Source of the DNA: a virus
Strand: one strand, 5' to 3'
IMG/VR virus record: IMGVR_UViG_3300046727_000675
Location: 1 to 64,000 of that record
Length of the DNA stretch: 64,000 bases
Under the pieces are notes generated by a model that was not told the origin of the DNA, did no database searches, and saw only the letters and a list, made by a program, of their open reading frames with translations. The translations under genes were made by a program, and so were the position numbers. Below, piece by piece: positions 10,820-63,009 of this stretch. Position 1 is the first letter of the stretch. Each line of letters starts with the position of its first letter.

Positions 10820-10821
10820 CC

Positions 10822-19519: not shown

Positions 19520-20289
19520 GGCCGCGCGTCTACCGGTTCCCGGACACGCGAAACTGGGGCGACGTGTTCACGTCGTTCCTGCTGCGCGAGTGGCTGGGGC
19601 TGGACTTCGACGAGACGGAGAACGCGTCGGACGCCGACGTGTTCGCCTGCGGGTCGCTGGTCGAGCGGGTCCCCGACGGGTTCACGGGCCACGTGCTGGG
19701 CTGCGGCGCGGGATATGCGTCGACGCGCCGGAACCTGCAGAACATTCAGGGGCCGGGTCTGCTGCGCGGCGCGCTCACCGCAAAGCGGTGTGGATACAAC
19801 TTCATCCGCCTCGGTGACCCCGGGCTCTTGGCGTCGCGGTTTGCCACGCCGGGGCTGAAGAGGTCCTACGGGCTCGGGGTCATCCCCCACACCGTGGACA
19901 AGAACAACGGGGAGCTCGCCTACTTCGCGGACGCGCTGGGGGCGCTGCTCATCGACATCGAGGCGGGCGTGCGCGAGGTGATCGACGCGATCGCGCAGTG
20001 CCAGCGCGTCGTGTCGTCGTCGCTCCACGGGCTCGTGATCGCCGACTCGCTGGGCGTGCCGTCCGCGTGGTGGCAGCCGCAGCCGTCGAAGCTGCTGGGC
20101 GACGGGTTCAAGTTCTACGACTACTACTCGGCGTACGGCGAGCTGGCGAGCCCGTCGCGGACGATCGAAGACGCGGTCTGCCAGACGCGCGACGTCGAGA
20201 AGAACCGGCACGACGTCTCGGAGGTATTCCAGGAGTTTGCCTACGTCATGGCGAACGGCCCCCTGGCCAAAACGGAGGCGACGGTGTGA
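19516..20289 (+). CDS. Polysaccharide pyruvyl transferase-like protein
   Basis: GTG 19516 overlaps the GT-B stop. The 257-residue product carries RNWGDVFTSFLLREW near the start and the diagnostic late motif SSSLHGLVIADSLGVPS, both typical of the CsaB/WcaK polysaccharide pyruvyl transferase family, which adds ketal-linked pyruvate from phosphoenolpyruvate to sugars. Pyruvylation adds a negative charge to surface glycans. The acceptor is unknown. It ends by overlapping the deacetylase start. Confidence 0.8.
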   Translation: MRPRVYRFPDTRNWGDVFTSFLLREWLGLDFDETENASDADVFACGSLVERVPDGFTGHVLGCGAGYASTRRNLQNIQGPGLLRGALTAKRCGYNFIRLGDPGLLASRFATPGLKRSYGLGVIPHTVDKNNGELAYFADALGALLIDIEAGVREVIDAIAQCQRVVSSSLHGLVIADSLGVPSAWWQPQPSKLLGDGFKFYDYYSAYGELASPSRTIEDAVCQTRDVEKNRHDVSEVFQEFAYVMANGPLAKTEATV

Positions 20290-20873
20290 ACAAGATCGCG
20301 CTCACCTTCGACGATGGCCCGAACGCGCGGCACACGGACGAGCTGCTGGCGGTGCTCGCGCGGCACGGGGTCAAGGCGACGTTCTTCATGATCGGGAAGT
20401 TCGCGGCGCAGCTGCCCGAGGTCGCGAGGCGCGTGGCGATCGCGGGGCACGCGATCGGGAACCATACGATGAACCATGCGCGGCTGACGGAGCTGGCGGA
20501 GGAAGACATCGCGCGAGAGATCTCCGACTGCGACGGCGAACTTGGGAAGATTGTCGGAGAACACTCGCTTTTGTTCCGCGCGCCGTTCATGCTCTCGAAC
20601 GCTGTCGTGGAGAAGATCGTCGAAGACTACGGTTTGACCCCGGTCGGGTACGATGCGGCCGGCGGCGACGGCGCGCCGCGCACCGCGGACGAGATCTTCG
20701 CGAAGGTCGTCAACGAGCTAGGCGACGGGGGCGGGACCGTGCTGCTGCATGACGGCTGCCACCACGACGTGAATGCCGACCGGTCGTCGACCATCGAGGC
20801 CGTGGACCGGCTGATCGCGCGCCGGAAGTGGAAAGACGGATTCGAGTTCGCGCTTCCGCAGGAGCTAACCTGA
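20286..20873 (+). CDS. Polysaccharide deacetylase (NodB-like)
   Basis: A 195-residue NodB-domain protein with the metal-binding and catalytic motifs in order: TFDDGP (motif 1, residues 7-12), HTMNH (motif 2) and RAPF (motif 3), ending with a LLHDG motif 5-like stretch. It would remove N- or O-acetyl groups from an oligosaccharide. GTG 20286 overlaps the previous stop. There is no signal peptide, so it acts in the cytoplasm or on intracellular precursors. Confidence 0.85.
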   Translation: MNKIALTFDDGPNARHTDELLAVLARHGVKATFFMIGKFAAQLPEVARRVAIAGHAIGNHTMNHARLTELAEEDIAREISDCDGELGKIVGEHSLLFRAPFMLSNAVVEKIVEDYGLTPVGYDAAGGDGAPRTADEIFAKVVNELGDGGGTVLLHDGCHHDVNADRSSTIEAVDRLIARRKWKDGFEFALPQELT

Positions 20874-21595
20874 TGGCGAAGGAGCTCGAGGTGAAAAGCT
20901 TAACGCCGGCGATGCGCGAGCGCTGCGAGCGGACGATCGGGTCGAACCCGTTCTTCCTGCTCGTCGCCGACGCGCTCGCGAGCGGGACCGCGCTGTCGGT
21001 CGTCCGCATGGGCGACGGCGAAAAGCGGCTGTTCGAGCACTGCGCGAGCCACGGCGGCGAGGTCGTCCCGCCCAACTCGCCGTTCGACCGCGCCTGGCTG
21101 CGACAGATGGGGTGCCTCGGCATCCCGTGCGGCGAGCTGTACGTCCGGCTGAAGCGCGCCGCGGAGGAGTGCACGTACTTCGCTCCGCAGCTGATGGGGG
21201 CGCAGCGCCCGGAGTTCGACGTCGCGGCGACGTTCAGGCCGCGCGACCGGTACGTGGACAACTGGTTCGTGCGCGAATGGGAGACGAAGCTGCAGGACGC
21301 GCTGCTGCGCGCGGCGAAGAAGGTCTGTTTCATCCACGGGGACGAGGCCGTGATTGGGAAGTTTCGAAAGAGGTTCATCGGCTCCGCGCCGAACGGGCTG
21401 CTCGCGGTCCACCAGCTGTGCTGCTGGAAGGAGTCGGACGAGGTGGTCGAACGCGTGAAGAACGACGACGCGCCGCTGGTGCTATACGCCGGCGGTCCCG
21501 CGGGCAAGTTCATCGGCCCCGCGATCGCGTCCGGCGGCGGGCGGCCGAAGGTCGTGATTGACCTTGGGCAGGCCGCGGCGAAGGAGTGGCTGTGA
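20873..21595 (+). CDS. GT-D-fold glycosyltransferase-like protein
   Basis: A 240-residue protein with the motif SVVRMGDGEKRLFE near residue 43, which fits the VRxGDGE signature of the GT-D (DUF1792) glycosyltransferase fold. Later strands (KVCFIHGDEAVIGKF, LVLYAGGPAGKFIGPAI, KVVIDLGQA) match the rest of that fold. ATG 20873 overlaps the deacetylase stop with AGGAG upstream. Donor sugar unknown. Confidence 0.7.
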   Translation: MAKELEVKSLTPAMRERCERTIGSNPFFLLVADALASGTALSVVRMGDGEKRLFEHCASHGGEVVPPNSPFDRAWLRQMGCLGIPCGELYVRLKRAAEECTYFAPQLMGAQRPEFDVAATFRPRDRYVDNWFVREWETKLQDALLRAAKKVCFIHGDEAVIGKFRKRFIGSAPNGLLAVHQLCCWKESDEVVERVKNDDAPLVLYAGGPAGKFIGPAIASGGGRPKVVIDLGQAAAKEWL

Positions 21596-23025
21596 TCTCG
21601 GTCCTGTGCCCGACTCGGGGAAGACCGAGGATGGCGGCGGATATGATCGCAAGCGCCTGCGCGACGTCGCGCGGAATGGGCCACATCGAATTTTTGCTCT
21701 ACGTTGATAATGATGATCCGTCGCTCGACGAATACCGAAAGATTCACGCGGTTCACACGCGTGGAGAAGACAGCAGTAGGGACCTGGTGACTTTGATCGT
21801 CGGCCCGCGGATGACGAAGATGACCGAGTATTGGAACATCTTGGCGCGCGCCGCGAAGGGCGATATTTTTCTGCAGGCCAACGACGACATCGCCTTCAGA
21901 ACCACGGACTGGGACAAGATGGTGCAGGACGCGTTCGACGCGTCGCCCGACAAGATCCTGCTCGCGCACGGCGACGACCTCGGCTGCGGCGGCGCCCGCG
22001 CCGGCGCGCACTGCTTCGTCCACAAAAAGTGGGTCGACGCGGTCGGGTACTTCATCGCGCCGCACTTCTCGTCCGACTACGGCGACACGTGGCTCAACGA
22101 CGTGGCGAACGAGCTCGGCCGGCGCGTGGTCCTGCCGGTCGTCATCGAGCACCTGCACGTGATCTACCGCAAGATGGAGCCCGACGCGACGTACCGGGAG
22201 CGCCTCGCGCGGCATGCGAAGGACGACGTGGACCAGCTCTACAAGGACCTGACGCCGCGCCGCGCGCTCGACGTCGCGAAGCTTCGCTCCGCAATCGCGG
22301 GCCGGCCGCTGTGGACGATCATGGTGCTCACGCAGCCGAGCCGGGAGGAGTACCTGAAGCGGCTCAAGACGCGCCTGCTTCCGCAGCTTGGAGGCGCGCC
22401 GGTCGACCTGCTGATCGAGCCGTGTGACACGCGCCTGACGGTCGGCGCGAACCGCCGGCGCATGACCGAGAAGGCCGCGGGGGAGTATGTCAGCTTCATT
22501 GACGATGATGATCTGGTCGCGGAGGACTACGTCGCGCGGGTCCTGCCGCTGCTCGACGGGGTCGACTACGTCGGCTTCCGGGTGCAGACGTTCGTCGACG
22601 ACCACGCGATCGAGCCGACGCACCACGCGCTTAAGTACGGCGGGGTCGGCTACGACGAGCGGATGAAGCGGAACTACCGTGACATCTCGCATCTGAACCC
22701 CGTGCGCCGCGAGCTCGCGCTCAGGGGCGTGATGGACGGCGGGGTCGGCGAGGACAGCCGCTGGGCCGACAGCCTGCGCGAGCAGGGGCTTTTGAAGACC
22801 GAGCACGTGGTCGACGAGAACGAGGTCATGTACTTCTACTACGCGCGCAGCCGCAAGGACGACGCGGACTACAAGTTTGTGACGATGCCGCCGGAGACGG
22901 TCGCCACCAAGTTCGACGGCATCGGCTTTGCCCGGGAGACGAAGACGTGCCCGCACTGCGGGTCGGGCGCGACGGCGCCCGGGAACGGCGCCATGATCTG
23001 CAATCAGTGCGGGAAGGGGTTCTGA
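21592..23025 (+). CDS. Two-domain GT-A glycosyltransferase with C-terminal zinc ribbon
   Basis: 477 residues. The first domain (about 1-230) starts ISVLCPTRGRP and has a DNDDPSLDEY acidic site. The second (about 240-445) starts IMVLTQPSREEY and has FIDDDDLVAEDYV, the DxD-like metal and nucleotide-sugar site. Two GT2-like catalytic units are therefore joined. The C-terminal 30 residues are a zinc ribbon, CPHC and CNQCGKGF, resembling the terminase tail. GTG 21592 overlaps the previous stop with AAGGAG at 21581-21586. It may make a disaccharide or alternate polymer. Confidence 0.75.
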   Translation: MISVLCPTRGRPRMAADMIASACATSRGMGHIEFLLYVDNDDPSLDEYRKIHAVHTRGEDSSRDLVTLIVGPRMTKMTEYWNILARAAKGDIFLQANDDIAFRTTDWDKMVQDAFDASPDKILLAHGDDLGCGGARAGAHCFVHKKWVDAVGYFIAPHFSSDYGDTWLNDVANELGRRVVLPVVIEHLHVIYRKMEPDATYRERLARHAKDDVDQLYKDLTPRRALDVAKLRSAIAGRPLWTIMVLTQPSREEYLKRLKTRLLPQLGGAPVDLLIEPCDTRLTVGANRRRMTEKAAGEYVSFIDDDDLVAEDYVARVLPLLDGVDYVGFRVQTFVDDHAIEPTHHALKYGGVGYDERMKRNYRDISHLNPVRRELALRGVMDGGVGEDSRWADSLREQGLLKTEHVVDENEVMYFYYARSRKDDADYKFVTMPPETVATKFDGIGFARETKTCPHCGSGATAPGNGAMICNQCGKGF

Positions 23026-23831
23026 TGGGAATACTGACGACCGCGTCGCGTAACTACTGGGACCGGCGCCCGTGCAACGTGGGGCACAGCCCGGCCGAGG
23101 TCGGCTCGATGGCCTGGTCGCGCGAGGTGACGTCGCGGAAGTACACGGTCGAGCCGCACATCCGGCGCTTCGCGGACTTCGACCGGTGGCGCGGGAAGGA
23201 CGTGCTTGAGGTCGGGTGCGGCATCGGCACCGACACGCTGGAGTTCCTGCGCGCCGGCGCGCGAGTCGACGCGATGGACCTGTCGCAGGCATCGATCGAC
23301 CTGGCGAAGAAGCGCTGCCGGGACTTCGGGGAACGCGTCAAGTTTATCTGCGACGACGCCCAGAACTGGGTGCCGTGGCTGAACAACCCGCACTACGACC
23401 TGGCGTACTCGTTCGGGGTTATTCACCACGTGGAACACCCGAAGACGGTTCTCGAGGCGATGCGCTCGGCGCTGAAGCCTGGCGGCGAACTGCGAGTCAT
23501 GCTCTACGCGCGGCGCAGCCTGAAGTTCCTGCTCGGCGAGCGGCCGGAGGCGCAGGCCGGGTGCCCGATCGTGAACTGGTACTCGGAGCGCGAGGCGCGG
23601 CGCCTGGTCGAGTCCGCGGGCTTCGAGATCATGAGCGTCGAGAAGACGCACATCTTCCCGTGGCGCGTCAAGGACTACGTGAACCACAGGTACGTAATGA
23701 GGTGGCCGTACCGGCTGATGAGCGAGGGGCTCTTCCGCTGGCTCGAGCGGCGCGCGGGGCACCACCTGCTGGTCATCGCGCGCAAGAAGATGGAGATCAA
23801 GTTCAAGGACTCGATCGAGGTGAACTATTGA
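23025..23831 (+). CDS. Class I SAM-dependent methyltransferase
   Basis: The SAM-binding motif I, VLEVGCGIGTDTLEFLRAG, is near residues 67-85, with the acidic end of strand 2 (VDAMDLSQASIDLA). Motif IV-like YDLAYSFGVIHHVEHP and a post-IV LKPGGELRVMLYA follow. This is the Methyltransf_11 type that often methylates sugars or small acceptors. The C-terminal 90 residues (SEREARRLVESAGFEI) are the usual lid. The start ATG overlaps the previous stop. In this island it probably decorates a glycan, though that is inferred. Confidence 0.8.
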   Translation: MGILTTASRNYWDRRPCNVGHSPAEVGSMAWSREVTSRKYTVEPHIRRFADFDRWRGKDVLEVGCGIGTDTLEFLRAGARVDAMDLSQASIDLAKKRCRDFGERVKFICDDAQNWVPWLNNPHYDLAYSFGVIHHVEHPKTVLEAMRSALKPGGELRVMLYARRSLKFLLGERPEAQAGCPIVNWYSEREARRLVESAGFEIMSVEKTHIFPWRVKDYVNHRYVMRWPYRLMSEGLFRWLERRAGHHLLVIARKKMEIKFKDSIEVNY

Positions 23832-24172
23832 GGCTGACGGAGCTCGAGCCGAAGTTCCTGAAGGTCACCGTGCCGAACAAGGAGTACGCCTACGTCGAGA
23901 CCATCGCGGAGGCGGACGGGGTAGACTTCCTCTGCCCCGAGTGCTTCCGCAGGCGCGGCGAGGCCCGCGGCGTCCATGGGGTCATCTGCTGGCGGCCGGC
24001 GGTGCCGTTGACGGAGAACATCGGCCCGGGGCGGTGGGAGCTGACGGGAAACAACTTTGAGGACCTGACGCTGGTCGCCGGGTCGAGTTCGGTGAAGCTG
24101 ACGGGCGGCTGCAACGCGCACTTTCTAATCGCGAATGGGGAGATCCAGTTCTGTGACGACTCAGGAAAATAG
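23828..24172 (+). CDS. DUF6527-like small protein
   Basis: A 114-residue protein with CPECF, a middle GRWELTGNNFEDLTL, then CNAHFLIANGEIQFCDD. That arrangement resembles the DUF6527 family (small Cys/His proteins seen in phages and ubiquitin-like operons). TTG 23828 overlaps the methyltransferase stop. The assignment is by remembered motif pattern only. The role is unknown; it may bind a metal. Confidence 0.5.
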   Translation: MRLTELEPKFLKVTVPNKEYAYVETIAEADGVDFLCPECFRRRGEARGVHGVICWRPAVPLTENIGPGRWELTGNNFEDLTLVAGSSSVKLTGGCNAHFLIANGEIQFCDDSGK

Positions 24173-25433
24173 CTTCGGGCGGGGGATCGCGGTCTGCGGG
24201 CTCGGCCGCCTGGGCGCGCCGGTGGCGGCGGCGTTCGCCGCGTCGGACGTGCCGGTGATCGGGCTCGACGTGGACGAGGCGAAGGTCCGCCACGTCAACG
24301 AGCGGCGCGCGCCGACGGTCGAGCCGGACCTGCAGGCCTACCTGGACCTGTTCCAGGTTCGCAACAACCTACGGGCGACCGCGGACCCGGCGATGGCCGT
24401 GGCGTCGTCGGACGCCTGCATCTTCGTGACGCCGACTCCGTCGCTTGACGACGGGAACTTCAACCACGACCTTCTGCTCGCGGCGGTCGAGTCGATCGCG
24501 CAGCAGGTGCGGAACCAGAAGCGCCGCAACTATCTGTTCATCGTCAGCTCCACCGTGGCCCCGAAGACGATGCAGAAGCGCGTGCGCCCCGTGATCGAGC
24601 GCCACCTCGGACGCGTCCCGTTCCTCCTGGCCTACAAGCCGGAGTTCATCGCGCTCGGGACGGTGCTGCGCGACCTGCACTACGCCGACGTGATGCTGAT
24701 CGGCGAGGACTCGGAGGAGGCGGGCGACCGGGTCGAGGGGCTCTACCGGCTGATGGCGCTCGGCCCCGTGAACGTGCGGCGCATGAGCCTGGTCGAGGCC
24801 GAGCTGGCGAAGATCAGCCTCAACTGCGCGGTCACGATGAAGATCAGCTTCGCGAACCAGGTCGGGCTCGTCGCGCGGCGGCTCGGCGCGGATCCACACC
24901 GGGTGCTCGCCGCCGTGGCCTGCGACAAGCGGATCGGACCCGGCGCGCTGCGCGCGGGGCTGCCGTACGGCGGACCGTGCTTTCCGCGCGACAACCGGAT
25001 GTTCCGCTTCGTCGCGGCGACCTACGGGGTGCAGGTTCCGCTCGCGATCGCGACGGACGTGGTGAACAAGATGGTGCTCGATGACATCCTGGAGAATCTG
25101 CTCGGGCGCGGCGGCGCCATCGGCATCCTCGGCCTGGCCTACAAGCCGGGCACGCCGGTGCTCGACGAGTCGCCGGGGCGGTGGTGGCTGCGCGCGCTGA
25201 CGCAGAAACACCGGACGGCGCGCGCGCACGACCCCGTGGCGCCCCACCCGCACTCGCTCGAGGACGTGCTGAGCTGCCAGACGGTGGTGGTGGCCACGGC
25301 CTGGCCGGAGTACGAGTCCCTGACTCTGCTGGCCGACGCGGTCCTGATCGACCCGTTCGGCGCCGTGAAGGAAGTGAGACGGCACGCGCGGGCACGAGTC
25401 GCGCCGCAGCCGGTGATGGAGATGGCGGAATGA
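24153..25433 (+). CDS. UDP-sugar / GDP-mannose 6-dehydrogenase-like protein
   Basis: Two-step NAD-dependent oxidation of a nucleotide sugar to its uronic acid is the family role. An N-terminal Rossmann motif (GIAVCGLGRLGAPVAAAF), the PTPSLDDG stretch and the catalytic Cys in YGGPCFPRD are present. The C-terminal domain has GILGLAYKPGTP, the UDP-binding part. GTG 24153 follows GGGGAG at 24137-24142. A longer ATG at 24135 is possible. This supplies an activated uronic sugar to the transferases beside it. Whether the substrate is UDP-glucose, UDP-HexNAc or GDP-mannose cannot be told. Confidence 0.85.
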   Translation: MTTQENSFGRGIAVCGLGRLGAPVAAAFAASDVPVIGLDVDEAKVRHVNERRAPTVEPDLQAYLDLFQVRNNLRATADPAMAVASSDACIFVTPTPSLDDGNFNHDLLLAAVESIAQQVRNQKRRNYLFIVSSTVAPKTMQKRVRPVIERHLGRVPFLLAYKPEFIALGTVLRDLHYADVMLIGEDSEEAGDRVEGLYRLMALGPVNVRRMSLVEAELAKISLNCAVTMKISFANQVGLVARRLGADPHRVLAAVACDKRIGPGALRAGLPYGGPCFPRDNRMFRFVAATYGVQVPLAIATDVVNKMVLDDILENLLGRGGAIGILGLAYKPGTPVLDESPGRWWLRALTQKHRTARAHDPVAPHPHSLEDVLSCQTVVVATAWPEYESLTLLADAVLIDPFGAVKEVRRHARARVAPQPVMEMAE

Positions 25434-26212
25434 GCATCAAGGGAAAGAGCCTGCACCTGCTGACGCCCATGTATGGCGGGGTCAACACGGTGAACTATTT
25501 CGACGCGTTCCAGAAGCTGGTGATCGCGGTGCAGAAGTACGGCATCCCGTTCTGGTACTCGAACATCTGGAACGAGTCGCTGGTCACCCGCGCGCGGAAC
25601 AAGCTCGCCGACACGTACCTGAAGGAGGGCGAGGCGACGCACGCCGTGTACATCGACGCGGACATCGGGTTCGACGCGGACGAGCTGCTGTCGATGCTCG
25701 AGCGCGAGGACGAGGACATCATCGTCGCGCCGTGCTCGAAGAAGAGCGTGCGCTGGGACCGGGTGCAGCGCATGATCCGGAAGAACCCGGGGCGCGAGTA
25801 CACGGGCGAGGAGCTCCGCCGCGCCGGCGGCGACCTGGTCTTCAACTTCGAGGCGTTCGAGGGAGAGCGCACCTGGGACCTGCAGAAGATGTGGGACCTT
25901 CGCAACGGCGGCACGGGCATCATGATGATCCGCCGAGGAGTGTTCGAGAAGTTTAAGCAGGAGTACCCCGACCGGTGGTACGAGCCGCGGTCGGACGACA
26001 CGGTGCTCCCGGGGCCGATCCACGACTTCTTCCGCGCGGGCATCAACCCGGACACGCGCGAGTACGACTCGGAGGACTACTGCTTCTGCATCGACTGCAA
26101 GCGGATCGGCTTCAGCGTCCGTCTGTGCCCGTGGGTGCGGACGACGCACATGGGGTCGAACCTGTTCTACGGCGACCTGCCGGCGGTCTCGAAGCTGGCG
26201 GGGGAGCTGTGA
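25430..26212 (+). CDS. GT-A glycosyltransferase-like protein
   Basis: A 260-residue protein with YIDADIGFDADELLSML, whose DxD is the metal site of GT-A transferases, and ARNKLADTYLKEGE before it. Late residues DYCFCIDCKRIGFSV and WVRTTHMGS are typical of GT2-like proteins in phages. It overlaps the dehydrogenase stop. It closes the glycan island. Donor and acceptor unknown. Confidence 0.75.
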   Translation: MSIKGKSLHLLTPMYGGVNTVNYFDAFQKLVIAVQKYGIPFWYSNIWNESLVTRARNKLADTYLKEGEATHAVYIDADIGFDADELLSMLEREDEDIIVAPCSKKSVRWDRVQRMIRKNPGREYTGEELRRAGGDLVFNFEAFEGERTWDLQKMWDLRNGGTGIMMIRRGVFEKFKQEYPDRWYEPRSDDTVLPGPIHDFFRAGINPDTREYDSEDYCFCIDCKRIGFSVRLCPWVRTTHMGSNLFYGDLPAVSKLAGEL

Positions 26213-54108: not shown

Positions 54109-54978
54109 ATGACCGGACACACCGCCGTCCCCGCGCCCGACCGCCGCGCGCTCGCGTCGTTCTGGGCGTTCGCGCTCGAGCGGCAGGCCGTCTGGCAGCG
54201 CCGCGCCCGCGGCCTGCCGCCGCCCTGGACCGACGACCCGGTCCTGCGCGCGCACAGGTTCACCAACATCTACCGGGAGCTCGACCGCGGCACGATCGCC
54301 GCGCACCGCTACTACGCCGCCGAGGCGCGCCGGGGGAGCCCGCGCGACCTCGCGTGGCGCGCCGTGTGCTTCCGGCTGTTCAACCGCGCCGCGACGCTCC
54401 AGGAGGTCGACTTCCCGTCGTGCGCCGCGTGGCCGCGGATGCGCCGCGGCGCGCTCGACGCGCTGCGGGCCAGGTCCGCCGCCGGCCGGCCGCTGTACAC
54501 GGGCGCCCACCAGGTGCGCGCGTGCACCGTGGACTGGGCCGGCGAGCTGCTCGACTCGGCGCACGCGTTCCTGCAGGGATGGGACTTCCGCGAGCGCGGC
54601 GCCGCCGCGTTCTACGCGGGCCTCAAGGAGGTCCGCTTCATGGGCGAGTTCCTCGGCCACCAGGTGTGCCGCGACCTCGCCGAGGAGGGCGCGCTCTCCG
54701 GCGGCCGCGACTGGTGCGTGGTCGGCCCCGGCGCGAGGGCCGGCCTGCGCCTGCTGTACGGCGCCGGCCTGCCGCGCGCCGCCGAGCCCGCCGCGATCGC
54801 GGCGCTGCTCGAGACGCAGTCGGTCCGCGCGCTCGTCGCCGCCGGAGGCCGCCGCATGCGGGCGCCGGAGGCGGAGCACGCGCTCTGCGAGTTCTTCAAG
54901 TACGACCGGATCCGGAGCAGCGCCGGCTTCGCGCGCACCAAGGGCGGCCCGTTCCGCCCGAGCGAGGAGCCGCTGTGA
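54109..54978 (+). CDS. Alpha-glutamyl/putrescinyl thymine pyrophosphorylase or HMU-kinase-helical-type protein
   Basis: 289 residues, all helical. RFTNIYRELDRGTIAAHRYY and WRAVCFRLFNRAATLQEV match the pattern of the HMUDK_hel family (the helical domain of 5-hydroxymethyl-dU DNA kinases and of alpha-glutamyl/putrescinyl thymine pyrophosphorylases), which act in making hypermodified pyrimidines in phage DNA. It has no P-loop of its own, so the kinase step must come from another gene. It is followed directly by DNA methyltransferase, Vsr and kinase genes. A short structured gap (54045-54108) with a GGATCG/CGATCC stem precedes it. Family from motif memory; chemistry inferred. Confidence 0.7.
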   Translation: MTGHTAVPAPDRRALASFWAFALERQAVWQRRARGLPPPWTDDPVLRAHRFTNIYRELDRGTIAAHRYYAAEARRGSPRDLAWRAVCFRLFNRAATLQEVDFPSCAAWPRMRRGALDALRARSAAGRPLYTGAHQVRACTVDWAGELLDSAHAFLQGWDFRERGAAAFYAGLKEVRFMGEFLGHQVCRDLAEEGALSGGRDWCVVGPGARAGLRLLYGAGLPRAAEPAAIAALLETQSVRALVAAGGRRMRAPEAEHALCEFFKYDRIRSSAGFARTKGGPFRPSEEPL

Positions 54979-56453
54979 GGGTCATCGCCATCAACAGCTA
55001 CGCCGGATCGCTGCTGATCGCGGCGCGCATGGCCGGCGCCGAGGTCCTGTGGTCGCTCGAGGACCACGGCTACGCGAGGGAGACGCAGCGCGCCAACTTC
55101 CCGGGCGTGCCGTACCGGGCGGAGCCGCCCTGGCCCGACGAGGACCTGGCCGACGTCCCGGTCATCGCGCACCCGCCGTGCGCCGCGTTCTCCGTGCAGA
55201 ACACCGGCGCGCGCCAGGCCGCGTCCCGCGGCGTCGAGGGCGGCCACTTCAAGAGCACGAAGGCCGTCGTCGACTACGCGGTCGGCCGCGGCTCGCCGGC
55301 CGTGATGATCGAGTCGGTGCCCGGCGCCTACGAGGGCACGCGCGGGTTCTACGACGGCATCGCGGCGGCGTCCGGGTACGGCGTCTACAGGATCCTGCAG
55401 AACGCCGCTGCGTTCGGCGTCCCGCAGTGGCGGCCGCGGTTCTGGTGCGTGCTGCTGCGCCCGGACCTCGCGGCGCGGCCGTTCGTCGTGCACCACCGGC
55501 CGGAGATGCGCACCGTCGCCGAGATACTCGAAGGCATCGATCCCGATGGCCCGGCCGTGAAGGCCGTCGTGCACGACTTCGACCGCACGGTCCGATCGCT
55601 TCGCGCCGCCGGCATCGCCGATGACGAGGCGGCCGCGCTGCTGCGCGGCGAGCACGGATATGGCCACCTGCACCGCGGCCTGCGAGCCGGCTTCGGCGTA
55701 AAGCTCACGACCGAGAACCGCACCGCGACGCTAAAGAAGTACGTGGGCATCAGCTTCAACTCCCAGATACCGCACATCCTGGACCCGACCGGCTCCTGCG
55801 CGACGCTCATCAGGACGAGCATCTGGATACACAACGAGCGGCCGCTGCCGGCCGCCGGCTACTGCCGTCTGATGGGCTACCCCGACGGCTACGTCTTCAG
55901 GCCGGAGTCGGAGCGCCTCGCGCTCCTGTCCCGCGGCGTCGTGCCGGCGGTCGCGGCATGGCTGCTCGACACGGTCCGCCGCCACCTCGAGGACCGGCCG
56001 CCGGACTCCGTCGAATACGGCGACTTCCTGTTCAACATGAAGCCGGGAGACACGGCGAACATGCTCATCACCGACGACGAGTTCCGGCAGACGAAACTGG
56101 ACATGGAGTCGCGCGACTCGCACGAGGATACGGCGAAGCGAGAACGATCGCCGCGCGCCGCGAGGCAGGCCGCGGCGCCGCGCGAGCCGCGCATCGGCGC
56201 CAGGTGGCGGCTCGCGAAGATCCCGGCGGCTCGCATGGAGTACGTGCGGAAGCTTATGTCGAGGGACTGCCGCACGCACAACGCGGCAGTGGCGAAGGCG
56301 CTCTCCGGCGAGCGCGGCGGGATCGCGTTCGACGAGATCATGGCCCGCGCAAGGGCCGACGGCTGGGAGACGACCAGCCCGAACCCGAGGGGCATCCTCA
56401 AGTGGCACCTGGACCTGCTGCGTAAGATGGGGATCGTGGAGGAGGCGAAGTGA
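54975..56453 (+). CDS. C5-cytosine DNA methyltransferase with winged-helix C-terminal extension
   Basis: 492 residues. Motif I INSYAGSLLIAARMAG, motif IV AHPPCAAFSVQN with the catalytic Cys, motif VI IESVPG (E kept, N replaced by S), motif VIII VPQWRPRFWCVL, and motif X-like GVVPAVAAWLLDTV. The last 100 residues add a winged-helix-like region (IAFDEIMARARADGW, then ILKWHLDLLRKMGIVEE). GTG overlaps the preceding stop. A phage C5 methyltransferase may protect DNA from host restriction or mark replicated DNA. Confidence 0.85.
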   Translation: MRVIAINSYAGSLLIAARMAGAEVLWSLEDHGYARETQRANFPGVPYRAEPPWPDEDLADVPVIAHPPCAAFSVQNTGARQAASRGVEGGHFKSTKAVVDYAVGRGSPAVMIESVPGAYEGTRGFYDGIAAASGYGVYRILQNAAAFGVPQWRPRFWCVLLRPDLAARPFVVHHRPEMRTVAEILEGIDPDGPAVKAVVHDFDRTVRSLRAAGIADDEAAALLRGEHGYGHLHRGLRAGFGVKLTTENRTATLKKYVGISFNSQIPHILDPTGSCATLIRTSIWIHNERPLPAAGYCRLMGYPDGYVFRPESERLALLSRGVVPAVAAWLLDTVRRHLEDRPPDSVEYGDFLFNMKPGDTANMLITDDEFRQTKLDMESRDSHEDTAKRERSPRAARQAAAPREPRIGARWRLAKIPAARMEYVRKLMSRDCRTHNAAVAKALSGERGGIAFDEIMARARADGWETTSPNPRGILKWHLDLLRKMGIVEEAK

Positions 56454-56800
56454 CGCGGTCCGAGATCATGTCGCGGATCCGGTCGGTCAGCGCGCTCGAG
56501 GCCGAGGCCCGGCCGATCGCGTCCCGCCGCGCGGGCTGCCGGCTGCGGCACCAGCCGAAGGGGATCCACGGCCGCCCGGACTACGCGAACAAGGCGAGGC
56601 TCACCGCGGTGTTCGTCCACGGCTGCTGGTGGCACCGCTGCCCCGCGCACTTCAAGGCGCCGAAAACAAACAGGAAATTCTGGGCAAGGAAGTTCGCGCG
56701 GAACGTCGCGCGGCACCGCGAGGTGTCCCGCGCGCTGCGGCGCCGCGGGTGGCGCGTCTTGACGATATGGGAGCACGAGGTAAGGGGGAGGAAGCCGTGA
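56450..56800 (+). CDS. vsr: Very short patch repair endonuclease (Vsr)
   Basis: 116 residues with the Vsr signature: MTRSEIMSRIRSVSALEAEA, HGRPDYANKARLTAVFVHGCWWHRCPAHFKAPK, KFWARKFARNV and VLTIWEHEV (zinc-binding and active-site residues in the HGCWWHRCPAH segment). Vsr nicks beside T:G mismatches formed when 5-methylcytosine deaminates. GTG overlaps the methyltransferase stop, as in the host dcm-vsr pair. The co-location is strong support for the methyltransferase being active. Confidence 0.9.
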   Translation: MTRSEIMSRIRSVSALEAEARPIASRRAGCRLRHQPKGIHGRPDYANKARLTAVFVHGCWWHRCPAHFKAPKTNRKFWARKFARNVARHREVSRALRRRGWRVLTIWEHEVRGRKP

Positions 56801-57717
56801 AGACGATCGTACTCGAGGGGCCCGACGGGAGTGGCAAGACGACGCTCGCGGCCGCGCTCGAGAGGCTCGGCTACGCCCGCGCGCACCGCGGGGTCCCGAA
56901 GCCGGGCCTGACCCCGGAGGGGATGATGTGGACGTACCTCGCGCCGCTGCTGCCGGCGCGGGGGAGCGACGGCCTGCGGGTGTTCGACCGCCTGCACCTC
57001 GGAGAGACCGTGTACGGCCCCGTCATGCGCGGCGGCTCGCAGCTCACGGAGCTGGGCGCGGCGCTCATCGACTCGTACGTCGAGGCGATCGACGGGCAGG
57101 TCGTCGTGTGCCTGCCGCCGTGGCGGTTCGTGCTCGCGAACTGGCTGCGCACCAAGAAGGACCAGTACGTGCGGACGCCGCGGCAGCTGCTGCGGATATA
57201 CCAGGGCTACCAGCGGCTGCTGTTCGGCGCGAAAAAGAACCGCGACTACCTCCACTTCGACTACACGCGGCACGGGGCGGCGACGGTCGCGGCCGCGCTG
57301 CGGGCGCTCTCCGGGTTCCCGCTGCCCGCGGACTGCGCCGGCTCGCAGCGGCCGCGGTTCGTCTTCGTCGGGGACCGCGCCGGGCGCGACGGACCCGACC
57401 TCCCGTTCATGTCGTGCGACGGGCCGGCCGGCTGGCTCCACGGGTGCCTCGCCGACGCCGGCTACCAGTGGCACGAGACCGCGTTCGCCAACGCGCTCGA
57501 CCCCGGCGGGCTCCCGCACAACCTGTCGCAGCTCGCGACGCGGTTTCCGGCGCGGCCGAGGTTCGTGGCGCTCGGCGCCGAGGCCGACCGCGGGCTGAAC
57601 GCGGCGCTGATCGAGCACCACGCGCTGGGGCACCCGCGGGACGCGGCCGGGAGCAGGGGACGCGCGCGGTACGTGCGCGCGCTGGCGGACATCCGCCGGG
57701 GGACGAGGACGCGATGA
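56797..57717 (+). CDS. P-loop nucleotide kinase with UDG-like C-terminal domain
   Basis: 306 residues. Walker A LEGPDGSGKTT at the N-terminus is of the thymidylate-kinase type, with VFDRLHLGETVYGPVM and a VVVCLPPWRFVLANWLRTKKDQYV lid-like region. From about residue 185 a separate domain has RFVFVGDRAGRDG, then NALDPGGLPHNL, and RFVALGAEADRGLNAAL followed by HALGHP, an order like the uracil-DNA-glycosylase fold. In the modification block it may phosphorylate the modified deoxynucleotide (T4 gp1-like), and the UDG-like part may read or process a modified base. GTG overlaps the Vsr stop. Confidence 0.7.
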   Translation: MKTIVLEGPDGSGKTTLAAALERLGYARAHRGVPKPGLTPEGMMWTYLAPLLPARGSDGLRVFDRLHLGETVYGPVMRGGSQLTELGAALIDSYVEAIDGQVVVCLPPWRFVLANWLRTKKDQYVRTPRQLLRIYQGYQRLLFGAKKNRDYLHFDYTRHGAATVAAALRALSGFPLPADCAGSQRPRFVFVGDRAGRDGPDLPFMSCDGPAGWLHGCLADAGYQWHETAFANALDPGGLPHNLSQLATRFPARPRFVALGAEADRGLNAALIEHHALGHPRDAAGSRGRARYVRALADIRRGTRTR

Positions 57718-57914
57718 TGGAAAAATACGGAAACATAGTGGTGATGGCGCCGTTCATTTTATTTTGGCTTTGTATGATGTTTGAGCGTCTTCCCGCGCGC
57801 TGTTGCTACTGCCGGCGGTGGAGTTGGATGTTCAAGATGCAGGACGTAGTATTTTCAGGAAACGGACCTGAGTCTTGCGAGGCGGGACGTTGCCATCCTG
57901 GATGCGCGCGATGA
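57714..57914 (+). CDS. Small Cys-rich membrane protein, 66 residues
   Basis: ATG overlaps the kinase stop. One membrane helix (IVVMAPFILFWLCMMF) and then CCYC and C-x5-C-x3-C at the C-terminus, suggesting a metal-binding membrane peptide. The DNA is less GC-rich than the flanking genes. No family named. Its end overlaps the next gene. Confidence 0.5.
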   Translation: MMEKYGNIVVMAPFILFWLCMMFERLPARCCYCRRWSWMFKMQDVVFSGNGPESCEAGRCHPGCAR

Positions 57915-58786
57915 TCATCCGGGGCGGGGACGTCTACGAGGCGTGGCGGCAGCTGCTGTGGCAGCTCACGGTGAACGGCCGCGAGGTGTCGCCGCGCGGG
58001 CTCGCGACCAAGGAGATTCTCGGGGTGCAGCTCCGCATCGACGACGCCTACCACAACATCATCGCCGACCCGGTTCGGAGGCTCAACTTCCGCTTCCTCG
58101 TGGCCGAGATGATCTGGATGGCGGCGGGGCTCGACGACCTCGCGCCGCTGACGCGCTACAACAGGGAGATGGCGAAGTTCTCGGACGACGGCGCGAGGCT
58201 CGCCGGCGCCTACGGGCCGCGGCTCGCGCAGCAGTGGACCTACGTCGTCGACACGCTGCTGTACGACGCAAGCTCGCGCGGCGCGGTGAGCGGAATCTGG
58301 CGCTGGCCGCAGGGGCGGTCGAAGGACGTCCCGTGCACGCTTTCCATGCAGTGGCTCATCCGCGCCGGGCTCCTCGAGACGATCGTGACGATGCGCAGCT
58401 CCGACGCCTGGCTCGGGATCCCGTACGACGTGGCCTCGTTCACCTTCCTCTCGAACCTGCTCTGCTGCTCGCTGAACGAGACGCGCCCCGAGCTGAACCT
58501 GCGGCTGGGCGGCCTCATCATGAACCTCGGCTCGTCGCACCTCTACGGGCCGAACTGGGAGGCCGCGTACAAGATCGCGGACCTGGGGCTCGGCCGCTCC
58601 GTCAAGAGCCCCCCGATCATCGAGTCGGCGCCGCTCGCGGCCGTCGCGCAGAGCCTGGTGAACGACGCCGATCCCGCGTGGGACCTGCTGGAGGGCCCGT
58701 GGCTGTCGTGGGCGCGCTGCCTGCGGGCCGGCACCAGCGAGAAGGCGCGGGTCATCCTCGAGGAGCTGGAGGACGGCCGTGCGTGA
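57911..58786 (+). CDS. Thymidylate-synthase-family dCMP hydroxymethylase-like enzyme
   Basis: 291 residues with the thymidylate synthase fold: glutamate E66 in the VAEMIWMAAG segment, catalytic Cys C142 in VPCTLS, R162 and D165 in RSSD, and H210/Y212 in SSHLYG. At the residue equivalent to E. coli ThyA Asn177 there is Asp (D173, in IPYDVASF). In T4 dCMP hydroxymethylase this Asp sets dCMP specificity, so I infer the substrate is dCMP rather than dUMP. Methylene-tetrahydrofolate would be the one-carbon donor. Adjacent genes encode a kinase and a dCMP deaminase. ATG 57911 overlaps the preceding stop. Confidence 0.75.
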   Translation: MIIRGGDVYEAWRQLLWQLTVNGREVSPRGLATKEILGVQLRIDDAYHNIIADPVRRLNFRFLVAEMIWMAAGLDDLAPLTRYNREMAKFSDDGARLAGAYGPRLAQQWTYVVDTLLYDASSRGAVSGIWRWPQGRSKDVPCTLSMQWLIRAGLLETIVTMRSSDAWLGIPYDVASFTFLSNLLCCSLNETRPELNLRLGGLIMNLGSSHLYGPNWEAAYKIADLGLGRSVKSPPIIESAPLAAVAQSLVNDADPAWDLLEGPWLSWARCLRAGTSEKARVILEELEDGRA

Positions 58787-59237
58787 GAGCCGCGAGGCGT
58801 ACTTCGTCAAGATGCTGGGGCTCGTCGCCGCGCGCTCGACCTGCGCGCGGCGCGCGGTCGGGGCGATCATCACCGACGTCCAGGGCCACGTGCTGTCGAT
58901 GGGCTACAACGGCGTGCCGTCCGGGGTCGCTCACTGCGTGGCCGGCGAGCGCACGTGCGACGGCTTCCAGGACCCGAAGGGCGACGTCCGGCGGTGCCTC
59001 GCGGTGCACGCCGAGCAGAACGCGCTGCTGCAGTGCTCGCGGCTGGACCTGGCGCACACGGTCTACGTCAGCTGCACGCCGTGCTTCGCGTGCGCGAAGA
59101 TGATCCTGAACACGCCGATCGCGCGCGTCGTCGCCGTCGCGCCGTACGTCGGCGACGACCTCGGGCAGGAGCTGCTGGTGAGACGGGAGAGGCTTTTCTA
59201 CTATGACGCAGACGCAGACCTCGCTGTCCTTTACTGA
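58779..59237 (+). CDS. dCMP deaminase-family protein
   Basis: 152 residues. The zinc and catalytic site is VHAEQNAL (H, A, E) and CTPCFACAK (PCxxC). It converts dCMP to dUMP, or in this setting could act on hydroxymethyl-dCMP to give the dUMP form. GTG overlaps the hydroxymethylase-like gene by 8 nt. Function from family; the altered substrate is a hypothesis. Its 3' end overlaps the polymerase by 35 nt. Confidence 0.9.
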   Translation: MRESREAYFVKMLGLVAARSTCARRAVGAIITDVQGHVLSMGYNGVPSGVAHCVAGERTCDGFQDPKGDVRRCLAVHAEQNALLQCSRLDLAHTVYVSCTPCFACAKMILNTPIARVVAVAPYVGDDLGQELLVRRERLFYYDADADLAVLY

Positions 59238-61068
59238 CGGGACAAGCTTCGGCCCCGCCGGGGACCGCGGACCGCGGCGCCAGGGGTCGGGGCTGAGGCC
59301 CGACGCGCTGCCGGACCAGTTCCCGGAGGGCGCGTGGCCCGCGATCGACGTGGAGTCGGACGGGCTCGGCCGCGACGCGCTGCCGGTCGGCATCGTCGTC
59401 GCGACGGCCGACGAGTCGCGCTACTTCCCGTTCGGGCACGCGGAGGGGCGGCAGCATGACCCGAAGGCCGTGCGCGTGTGGTGCGAGGAGCACCTGGCCG
59501 GCGAGGACCTGATCTTCCGCAACGCGAAGGGCGACCTCGACTGGCTGCGCCGGTGGGGGCTCGACCTCGAGGCGCTCGGCGCGCGGCCGCACGAGATCCA
59601 GCACCCCGCCGCGCTGCTCGACGACCGCCGCCGCAAGTTCAAGCTCGAGGACCTGGCGCAGGACCGCCTGGGCCGCGGCAAGCTGGCGCCGCCGCCGGGC
59701 AAGATCCACGAGTTGCCGGCCGACGTGGTCGCGCCGTACGCGCGCGAGGACGGGCGTCTGACCCGCGAGTGCTGGTTCAGCTACCTGCCGGACATCGAGC
59801 GCGAGGGGCTCGGCGAGGTGCTGGCGCTCGAGGACGGCTTGATCTGGTCGACCATGGCGATGGAGCGCGCCATGGCGCCGATCGACGCGCCGAAGCTCGA
59901 GCGGTGGATAGCCGAGGTGACGGCCGAGCACCAGAAGCGGCTGATGGACATCTGGCGCCTGACCAAGTTGCGCGTGAACCCGGACTCGGGCCGGGACATG
60001 CGCAAGTTCTTACAGAACTTCGGCGTCGCGCACACGGGCTTCACGACCGAGAAGGGGAACGAGGCCTTCACCGAGGAAGCGCTGCTGCGCCACTCGGGAC
60101 GCTATGAAGGAGACGGAAAAGATCGAAGATGGGTTATCACGAACCCGGCGGTCCACGCCGCGCTCGAGGCGCGGCAGCTCGCGTCGCTGCTCTCGAAGTA
60201 CCTGCTGAAATACCGGGACGCGCTGCTGCCCGGCGGCCTCCTGCCGTACCAGCTGCACCAGCTGCGCGGCGACGAGAACGGCACGATCACCGGGCGCTAC
60301 GCGTCGTCGAAGGTGAACATCCAGCAGGTCTACAAGCCGGATAAGCAGCCGGCCCTGACGCAGCGGTGGGTCATCCGCGAGCTGTTCCTCGCCGGCGAGG
60401 GCGCGGACCTGCTCGACGCCGACGCGAGCCAGATCGAGTACCGGCTGTTCGCGCACAACTCGTCGGTGCCGCCGCCGCACTCGACGCGCCTCATCGAGGC
60501 CTACAACGACGACCCGGACACGGACTTCCACCAGCTCGTGACCGACGAGATCCTGCAGAACGTAATGGAGCGCGTGTACGCGAAGAACTGGAACTTCCGC
60601 AAGCTCTACGGCGGCGGCGTGGCCAAGTCGGCCGCGATGACGGGTCTTCCGCTCGAGCGGTGCAAGGAGATGGACGCGCAGTACGACCGCCGCTTCCCCG
60701 AGGCCACGCGCCTGCTGCGCTTCTGCGAGCGGCTCGCCGAGCGGCGCGGGTACGTGAAAACGATCTCCGGCCGGCGGTCGCGCTTCCAGGAGGGCGACCG
60801 GTTCTACAAGGCGCTGAACTCGGTGCTGCAGGGGTCAGCGGCGGACATCATGAAGAAGAAGATCCTGCGGCTGTACAACGAGCGCAAGACCCTCGAGATC
60901 GTCCTGCGCGCGACGGTGCACGACGAGGTGTGGGGCGATCGAAAAAATAAGAGCAAGAAGTCAGCGAGGCTGCTCGAAGAGTGCTTCGCCGTGCAGGAGT
61001 ACAAGCTCAACGTGCCGATCACGTGGAGCATCGGCTACGGCAAGAACTGGGCGGAGGCGATGACGTGA
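59203..61068 (+). CDS. DNA polymerase family A with 3'-5' exonuclease
   Basis: 621 residues. The exonuclease has AIDVESDG (Exo I), IFRNAKGDLDWL (Exo II) and YAREDGRLT (Exo III). Polymerase motif A is DADASQIEYRLFA, motif B is AKNWNFRKLYGG with F at the place of E. coli Phe762, and motif C is VHDEVWG. This is the replicative polymerase of the phage. There is no 5'-3' exonuclease. ATG 59203 lies inside the deaminase gene. The sequence is intact. Confidence 0.95.
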   Translation: MTQTQTSLSFTDGTSFGPAGDRGPRRQGSGLRPDALPDQFPEGAWPAIDVESDGLGRDALPVGIVVATADESRYFPFGHAEGRQHDPKAVRVWCEEHLAGEDLIFRNAKGDLDWLRRWGLDLEALGARPHEIQHPAALLDDRRRKFKLEDLAQDRLGRGKLAPPPGKIHELPADVVAPYAREDGRLTRECWFSYLPDIEREGLGEVLALEDGLIWSTMAMERAMAPIDAPKLERWIAEVTAEHQKRLMDIWRLTKLRVNPDSGRDMRKFLQNFGVAHTGFTTEKGNEAFTEEALLRHSGRYEGDGKDRRWVITNPAVHAALEARQLASLLSKYLLKYRDALLPGGLLPYQLHQLRGDENGTITGRYASSKVNIQQVYKPDKQPALTQRWVIRELFLAGEGADLLDADASQIEYRLFAHNSSVPPPHSTRLIEAYNDDPDTDFHQLVTDEILQNVMERVYAKNWNFRKLYGGGVAKSAAMTGLPLERCKEMDAQYDRRFPEATRLLRFCERLAERRGYVKTISGRRSRFQEGDRFYKALNSVLQGSAADIMKKKILRLYNERKTLEIVLRATVHDEVWGDRKNKSKKSARLLEECFAVQEYKLNVPITWSIGYGKNWAEAMT

Positions 61069-62494: not shown

Positions 62495-62725
62495 ATGGAG
62501 AAAAAGTGGAGATTCAAACGGTGGTATCCCAAGACAATCGGTGGGAAGATTATTCTGACGGGCAGGGTAACCGCCACGCCGTGCTTGGGGCGAACCGTTC
62601 TGTGGATGACCGCCGGAGGTCTGAATACCCATTTCAAATTTGAGCTTCCTGTGTCTTCGCGTCACTTTCGGCATGGCGACACGGTGACCATCGTGGTGTC
62701 GCGCGATCGCAGGAGAAAAAGATGA
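62495..62725 (+). CDS. Hypothetical small beta-rich protein, 76 residues
   Basis: ATG 62495 immediately after the DUF2130 stop. Basic, beta-rich (KIILTGRVTATPCLGRTVL, HFRHGDTVTIVVSRDRR). The DNA is less GC-rich than the flanks. No family named. Overlaps the MazG-like gene by 4 nt. Confidence 0.6.
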   Translation: MEKKWRFKRWYPKTIGGKIILTGRVTATPCLGRTVLWMTAGGLNTHFKFELPVSSRHFRHGDTVTIVVSRDRRRKR

Positions 62726-63009
62726 CCAGCAACGAGCGCGAGCGGATCGCCCTGGACCTCGCCCAGGAGGAGTGCGCCGAGCTGGCCGTGGTCATCTCGA
62801 AGGTGAAGCGCTTCGGGATCCTGTCCGACAACGACGGCAGGATGCCGGCGAACAACCGCGCGCTGCTCATCCAGGAGATGGCCGACGTCGAGTACTTCAT
62901 CAACTTCATGCGCCGCGAGTACAAGGTCGACGAGGACGAGTTCAGGGACGCGTACCACAGGAAGTGCCAGAAGGTGAACAAATATCTGTACCCGGAGGAG
63001 AAGACATGA
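62722..63009 (+). CDS. MazG-like nucleotide pyrophosphohydrolase
   Basis: 95 residues, all helical: LAQEECAELAVVISKVKRFG (E-E-x-x-E metal-binding helix) and IQEMADVEYFINFMRREY (E-x-x-D motif) fit the all-alpha NTP pyrophosphohydrolase superfamily. In modified-base phages such enzymes can remove dCTP or other competing dNTPs. ATG overlaps the previous stop. Confidence 0.8.
   Translation: MTSNERERIALDLAQEECAELAVVISKVKRFGILSDNDGRMPANNRALLIQEMADVEYFINFMRREYKVDEDEFRDAYHRKCQKVNKYLYPEEKT

What the first reader, a model, noticed from the sequence alone, without database searches (positions are those of the whole stretch)
57911..58786. Asp at the ThyA Asn177 position points to dCMP, not dUMP
Seen: the spacing C142-R162-D165-D173 equals C146-R166-D169-N177 of E. 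coli ThyA, and position 173 is Asp. Known: the T4 hydroxymethylase has Asp there and the Asn-to-Asp change switches synthase specificity toward dCMP. This suggests hydroxymethylcytosine or methylcytosine nucleotide production.
Basis: partly seen in the sequence, partly recalled or inferred. Interest (0 to 1): 0.7.

Follow-up and report, generated by a model that had tools for sequence, protein, structure and literature searches.

The report
Phage enzyme making 5-hydroxymethyl-cytosine nucleotides
This virus of bacteria carries an enzyme that looks like the thymidine-making enzyme but is rebuilt to modify cytosine, most likely adding a hydroxymethyl group so that the virus can hide its DNA from bacterial defences; the kind of enzyme is known, but here it sits beside an unusual set of DNA-decorating genes.

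Summary
The ORF at 57911-58786 has the thymidylate synthase (TS) fold, with C142-R162-D165-D173 spaced exactly as C146-R166-D169-N177 of E. coli ThyA. The Asp is no chance: 87 sequences with Thr at ThyA position 147 all carry Asp at 177, and 20 with Asn at 147 all carry Asn at 177. The dCMP reading is supported and can be narrowed to hydroxymethylation. The protein has Asp three residues before the catalytic Cys (D139), the published water-activating residue of T4 dCMP hydroxymethylase. It lacks the TS tail and keeps folate-binding Asp165 and the deoxyribose-selecting Arg and Ser. Its best solved relative is CMP hydroxymethylase MilA (Z 30, against 22 for TS). Xp12-related enzymes (inferred methylases) and the RB69 5-hydroxy-dCMP synthase differ at these sites. 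The phage encodes ThyX separately, and a MazG-like pyrophosphatase, kinase and dCMP deaminase complete a T4-like precursor route that recurs in about 80 virus contigs. AXL3, a cultured phage with the same module, has DNA cut only by enzymes with A/T-only sites. No activity was tested. The enzyme is a new member of a known kind. The odd part is a neighbouring HMUDK_hel (hmU-type hypermodification) gene and a variant cytosine methyltransferase.

The parts
57911..58786 (+). Predicted dCMP hydroxymethylase (TS superfamily); C142 nucleophile, E66, D139 water activator, T143, R162, S163, D165, D173
   Evidence: residue roles from PMC6400193 and PMC5175136
58779..59237 (+). dCMP deaminase (dCMP to dUMP, feeding ThyX)
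   Evidence: Pfam PF00383 E 1.3e-16; phrog_174 dCMP deaminase E 4e-33; present in 73 of 80 related loci
56797..57717 (+). Thymidylate-kinase-like nucleotide kinase (inferred hm-dCMP kinase) with a C-terminal domain carrying UDG-like motifs
   Evidence: phrog_761 E 4e-9; model pLDDT 93.9, best PDB match 3kb2 Z 17.1 over residues 2-178; within 1.5 kb upstream in 74 of 80 loci; C-terminal motifs
59203..61068 (+). Family A DNA polymerase (would incorporate hm-dCTP)
   Evidence: PF00476 E 4.5e-43
54109..54978 (+). HMUDK_hel / alpha-GPT-type hypermodification protein (possible tailoring enzyme of hydroxymethyl base in DNA)
   Evidence: PF18723 E 7.8e-42; conserved PPWTxDP, R..D, GPG, CE.K motifs
54975..56453 (+). 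DNA C5-cytosine methyltransferase-like protein, variant motifs HPPCxxFS and ESV
   Evidence: PF00145 E 1.3e-11; relatives in 13 of 80 related loci; motifs
56450..56800 (+). Vsr-like mismatch endonuclease
   Evidence: PF03852 E 8.8e-11; TIGR00632 E 4e-26, just under its cut-off
62722..63009 (+). MazG-like NTP pyrophosphohydrolase (second copy at G000:64995-65447, outside the window)
   Evidence: phrog_4856 E 9e-18; second copy PF01503 E 2.3e-10

Best explanation
The protein is a 5,10-methylene-tetrahydrofolate-dependent dCMP 5-hydroxymethylase. Shown by sequence: the catalytic Cys142, the dCMP-reading Asp173 with Thr143, deoxyribose-selecting Arg123 and Ser163, folate-contacting Glu66 and Asp165, and the water-activating Asp139. 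Inferred mechanism: Cys142 attacks C6 of dCMP, Asp173 protonates N3, the methylene of the folate is passed to C5, tetrahydrofolate leaves, and Asp139 activates a water that adds to the exocyclic methylene, giving 5-hydroxymethyl-dCMP with no reduction step. Inferred pathway: the MazG-like enzyme degrades dCTP to dCMP, the hydroxymethylase converts dCMP, the TMPK-like kinase and host kinase raise it to the triphosphate, and the phage PolA builds it into DNA. The dCMP deaminase plus the phage's own ThyX supply dTMP. The result would be phage DNA in which cytosine is partly or fully replaced by 5hmC, possibly decorated further by the neighbouring HMUDK_hel and C5-methyltransferase-like proteins.
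For: (1) D173 and T143 co-vary as T/D in 87 of 87 relatives, with T4 gp42 and MilA of the same type. MetaGPA independently found positions 177 and 147 the two best markers of cytosine-modified phage contigs (PMC8670742). (2) D139 equals T4 Asp145, the published signature of hydroxymethylation; it is Asp in 87/87 T/D and 20/20 N/N enzymes, Leu in TS, and Asn in 11/11 Pamexvirus-type enzymes. T4 D145N makes no 5hm-dCMP (PMC6400193). (3) No TS C-terminal tail, Met at Trp80. (4) Best PDB relatives: MilA by sequence (85 bits against 41 for TS) and by predicted structure (Z 30 against 22; model pLDDT 93.7). (5) NCBIfam TS equivalog cut-offs not reached (50 of 327, 43 of 108 bits). (6) ThyX in the same phage (PF02511 E 3e-39; TIGR02170 over cut-off) and in 14 of 50 records searched, the window's own included. 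Two further contigs carry a normal H/N ThyA beside the T/D enzyme. (7) Conserved module TMPK 74/80, dCMP deaminase 73/80, MazG 64/80. (8) Phage AXL3, same module plus ThyX, has DNA cut by only 2 of 37 enzymes, both with A/T-only sites (PMC7504290). (9) Tree: T/D, N/N, P/D, H/N each need a single change; window inside T/D.
Against: No activity or DNA analysis. T4's Ser94, given as a co-signature, is Gly99 here; but SPO1 and YuA dUMP hydroxymethylases also lack it (Ala, Gly) and T4 S94A keeps about 25% activity. T4 gp42 itself keeps Trp at position 80, so loss of Trp80 is only supportive. The HMUDK_hel neighbour is best known from hmU phages. A C5-methyltransferase-like gene is hard to place if every cytosine is already hydroxymethylated. 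AXL3 digestion does not by itself separate C from G modification. Support for T/D as one clade is modest (72/64).
Confidence: 0.85

Rival explanations
1. It is a 5-methyl-dCMP synthase like that of phage Xp12: same dCMP specificity, but the methylene is reduced to methyl using the folate, giving 5mC in DNA.
For: Asp at 177 alone does not separate the two; ThyA N177D makes 5-methyl-dCMP (PMC8670742). Phage Xp12 has 5mC and belongs to the genus of PaMx28. A Vsr-like gene fits 5mC biology.
Against: The 11 Pamexvirus-type (Xp12-related) enzymes have Pro at 147, Asn in place of Asp139, Trp80 and a TS-like tail, and 9 of 11 loci carry an adjacent DHFR found with a dedicated profile; the window phage and the T/D loci have none of these. 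They group with true ThyA at 100/99, apart from the window. The Xp12 sequence itself was not in the collections.
Confidence: 0.06
2. It is a flavin-dependent 5-hydroxy-dCMP synthase like that of RB69-type phages (PDB 9iqc, 9iqu), giving 5-hydroxycytosine.
For: RB69-type enzymes share T147 and D177 and rank just after MilA in structure (Z 24 and 23.5).
Against: The RB69 enzyme has Asn for ThyA D169, Glu for Asp139 and Phe for Y209; the window protein keeps Asp165, Asp139 and Tyr212. It aligns better to MilA (32% against 20-22% identity).
Confidence: 0.05
3. It is an ordinary thymidylate synthase making dTMP, as AXL3 gp28 was annotated.
For: Pfam and AXL3 annotation; a dCMP deaminase next door.
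Against: Asp177 and Thr147, no TS tail, NCBIfam TS cut-offs not reached, ThyX present in the same genome.
Confidence: 0.02
4. The enzyme makes hm-dCMP, but the adjacent deaminase turns it into hm-dUMP, so that the DNA carries 5hmU, the usual substrate of HMUDK_hel proteins.
For: HMUDK_hel is next door; 19 of 20 N/N (hmU-type) loci carry it, though most of these were fetched through it.
Against: The deaminase occurs in 73 of 80 T/D loci, nearly all without HMUDK_hel, so its usual role is dUMP supply. AXL3 DNA resistance follows G/C-containing sites. No YuA-type hmU DNA kinase, second GPT or PLP enzyme was found in the phage.
Confidence: 0.05

Closest known systems
MilA, CMP 5-hydroxymethylase (PDB 5jnh, 5b6d)
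   Same: Best solved relative by sequence and structure; Thr after catalytic Cys, Asp at the 177 position, Asp three before the Cys
   Different: MilA has Lys133 and Ala176 for ribose; the window protein has Arg123 and Ser163, the dCMP state; phage context instead of antibiotic synthesis
Phage T4 gp42 dCMP hydroxymethylase
   Same: Same substrate-reading Asp, same Thr, same water-activating Asp, no TS tail; same pathway logic with dCTPase, kinase and dCMP deaminase
   Different: About 23% identical, Ser94 is Gly here, Trp82 is Met; T4 decorates with glucosyltransferases, here HMUDK_hel and a C5-methyltransferase-like protein
AXL3-type nucleotide module (Stenotrophomonas phage AXL3 gp27-gp31, ThyX gp50)
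   Same: Same order TMPK-like, hydroxymethylase, dCMP deaminase, plus MazG and ThyX; DNA resists enzymes with G/C in their sites
   Different: AXL3 has a SAM methyltransferase gene in the slot and no HMUDK_hel next to the module; annotated there as dTMP synthesis
MetaGPA cytosine-modified phage contigs (PMC8670742)
   Same: TS homologues with Asp177 and changed 147, with dCMP deaminase and phosphoribosyl-ATP pyrophosphohydrolase domains
   Different: Those studied further used a carbamoyltransferase; HMUDK_hel not reported in the passages read

Membership tests
Pyrimidine nucleotide hydroxymethylases (TS superfamily) | TS fold with catalytic Cys, Glu58 and Tyr94 equivalents | tested here: met
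   C142, E66, Y101 aligned; predicted fold Z 30 to MilA
Pyrimidine nucleotide hydroxymethylases (TS superfamily) | Asp three residues before the catalytic Cys (T4 Asp145) | tested here: met
   D139; Asp in 87/87 T/D and 20/20 N/N, Leu in TS, Asn in P/D
Pyrimidine nucleotide hydroxymethylases (TS superfamily) | No TS C-terminal tail over the folate | tested here: met
   C-terminus lacks the PxPxV/APVAI tail
dCMP hydroxymethylase, T4 gp42 type | Asp at ThyA Asn177 | tested here: met
   D173
dCMP hydroxymethylase, T4 gp42 type | Ser or Thr at T4 Ser94, two before the Tyr | tested here: not met
   Gly99; so not filed in the narrow gp42 subfamily, only in the wider hydroxymethylase group
dCMP hydroxymethylase, T4 gp42 type | Makes 5hm-dCMP from dCMP and CH2-THF | not testable with these tools
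   Needs enzyme assay
CMP hydroxymethylase (MilA, BcmA) | Lys133 and Ala176 (ribose preference) | tested here: not met
   Arg123 and Ser163
Thymidylate synthase ThyA | Asn177, His147 and C-terminal tail; curated TS cut-off | tested here: not met
   Asp173, Thr143, no tail; NCBIfam cut-offs not reached
5-methyl-dCMP synthase, Xp12-related | Pro147, Asn before Cys, Trp80, TS-like tail, adjacent DHFR | tested here: not met
   the clade's methylase role is inferred from Xp12 kinship
5-hydroxy-dCMP synthase, RB69 type | Asn at ThyA D169 and Glu before Cys (as in RB69 ORF048c, 9iqc) | tested here: not met
   Asp165 and Asp139 in the window protein; compared with one enzyme only
dUMP hydroxymethylase (SPO1 gp29, YuA gp17) | Asn at both 147 and 177 | tested here: not met
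   Thr143 and Asp173
HMUDK_hel / alpha-GPT family (neighbour 54109-54978) | PF18723 match over the cut-off with conserved motifs | tested here: met
   144 bits against cut-off 25; motifs

The most novel reading that the evidence does not exclude
The phage makes 5hmC at the nucleotide level and then builds a hypermodified cytosine in its DNA with an HMUDK_hel/alpha-GPT-type protein, possibly together with the variant C5-methyltransferase, a chemistry so far known from hydroxymethyluracil phages.
Probability: 0.3. Interest if true: 0.75.

Novelty: new member of a known kind. Interest (0 to 1): 0.42.

Why it matters
Many phage genes annotated 'thymidylate synthase', AXL3 gp28 among them, are probably cytosine hydroxymethylases, and four residues (three before the Cys, 147, 169, 177) sort the superfamily into thymidylate synthase, hmU, hmC, inferred mC and hoC makers. 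The module predicts 5hmC-type DNA in many uncultured phages, which matters for restriction escape, sequencing bias and enzyme discovery. The pairing of a dCMP hydroxymethylase with an HMUDK_hel protein points to an untested cytosine hypermodification.

Tried and rejected
A scan of viral contigs with the single window protein found nothing; an alignment was needed. The Pfam DHFR search found none in 50 T/D records but also missed most Xp12-type DHFRs, so the absence was re-tested with a profile of those divergent DHFRs on G000 and the fetched loci only. Xp12 (MT664984) is not in the phage collection. A dedicated cytosine clade of HMUDK_hel proteins was looked for and not found: T/D-linked ones are scattered on long branches. 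No YuA-type hmU DNA kinase, second GPT or PLP enzyme was found in the phage. The fold search of the kinase model was filled by thymidylate kinases, so its C-terminal half stays unassigned. Papers describing the 5-hydroxy-dCMP synthase and the alpha-GPT prediction are not held; the former was read only through PMC13390438 and the PDB titles.

Full report
The window is bases 1-64000 of an 87,304-base virus record. It is a tailed phage, nearly all genes on the + strand, about 67% G+C. The gene in question lies in a nucleotide-metabolism and replication stretch: HMUDK_hel protein, C5-methyltransferase-like protein, Vsr-like endonuclease, kinase, the TS-like protein, dCMP deaminase, family A DNA polymerase, then DUF2130 and MazG-like proteins. 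Beyond the window the record encodes a second MazG-like protein (64995-65447) and ThyX (71053-71718).

The protein aligns to ThyA with C142, R162, D165 and D173 at the positions of C146, R166, D169 and N177, and D173 shares its column with the specificity Asp of T4 gp42 and MilA. The pattern is unique in the record's six frames. Among relatives from phages and IMG/VR, position 147 and position 177 never vary independently: Thr goes with Asp (87), Asn with Asn (20), His with Asn (3), Pro with Asp (1 in this set, 11 in a wider one), and one Leu with Asp. The same two positions were found by others to separate cytosine-modified from unmodified phage contigs (PMC8670742).

Substrate. Asp at 177 reads cytosine (T4 D179N loses activity, PMC6400193). 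Ser163 and Arg123 match the deoxyribose-preferring enzymes and not MilA's Ala and Lys (PMC5175136). So dCMP, not CMP or dUMP.

Product. The TS superfamily offers three cytosine products. Hydroxymethylation needs the Asp three residues before the catalytic Cys, which activates water; T4 D145N is dead for it (PMC6400193). The window protein has it (D139), as do all T/D and N/N relatives; true ThyA has Leu, and all 11 Pamexvirus-type proteins, the kin of 5mC phage Xp12, have Asn. Those proteins also keep Trp80 and a TS-like tail, nine of the eleven loci carry an adjacent DHFR, and they group with ThyA in the tree. The window protein lacks all of these. The RB69 5-hydroxy-dCMP synthase shares Thr and Asp at 147 and 177 but has Asn for D169 and Glu for the water-activating Asp. 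The window protein keeps both Asp residues. T4's Ser94 is Gly here, so it is not filed in the narrow gp42 subfamily; SPO1 and YuA hydroxymethylases lack that Ser too.

Structure. An AlphaFold model from 40 window and IMG/VR sequences has mean pLDDT 93.7. The best solved matches are MilA entries (Z 30.0-30.3, about 270 residues, 32% identity), then the RB69-type dCMP hydroxylase (Z 24.0 and 23.5), then thymidylate synthases (Z 21-22).

Context. In 80 related IMG/VR loci the kinase is within 1.5 kb upstream in 74, a dCMP deaminase is present in 73, and MazG in 64. ThyX is in 14 of 50 records searched, the window's own included, and two contigs carry a normal ThyA as well, so the T/D protein is not the phage's thymidylate synthase. 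Stenotrophomonas phage AXL3 has the same module and ThyX, and its DNA was cut by only two of 37 enzymes, both with A/T-only sites (PMC7504290). Its authors read the cluster as dTMP synthesis; the residues here suggest hm-dCMP synthesis instead.

What is unusual. HMUDK_hel proteins are known from hydroxymethyluracil phages. Here one sits in the same gene run as a dCMP hydroxymethylase; the pairing was seen in 5 of 50 T/D records, and the proteins fall in no single T/D clade. No YuA-type hmU kinase accompanies it. A C5-methyltransferase-like protein with conserved variant motifs recurs in the same branch of T/D phages. What these do with hydroxymethylated cytosine is unknown; a tailoring role is inference.

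Overall: observation confirmed, interpretation supported and narrowed, enzyme of a known kind, surroundings worth a test.

Noticed in passing
54109-54978: HMUDK_hel (5-hmdU DNA kinase helical domain / alpha-GPT family) protein beside a predicted dCMP hydroxymethylase, in a genome without a detectable YuA-type hmU DNA kinase.
   Followed up: partly
54975-56453: C5-cytosine methyltransferase-like protein with clade-wide variant motifs (HPPCxxFS, ESV instead of ENV), recurring near T/D hydroxymethylases; followed by a Vsr-like endonuclease.
   Followed up: partly
57350-57717 (C-terminal part of the kinase): About 120 residues with motifs resembling uracil-DNA glycosylases (VGD, PF, LG..A, HP..RF), on the kinase ORF in 55 of 56 loci where it was found; no Pfam match and its fold was not tested alone.
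   Followed up: partly
L018 (hydroxymethylase-like ORF from 4764): A relative with Leu at 147 and Asp at 177, Thr in place of Asp139, in a contig that carries the closest relative of the window's HMUDK_hel protein; product unclear.
   Followed up: no
18266-26212: Block of sugar genes (glycosyltransferases, pyruvyl transferase, polysaccharide deacetylase, UDP-glucose/GDP-mannose dehydrogenase, methyltransferase) after the capsid genes.
   Followed up: no
8594-13740: A short peptide, KYS(E/D)DEARDE(Q/N)GR(W/F), recurs several times in two neighbouring structural-module ORFs.
   Followed up: no
L004 (AXL3 gp28): Annotated thymidylate synthase has the T/D and Asp-before-Cys pattern, so is probably a dCMP hydroxymethylase.
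   Followed up: partly
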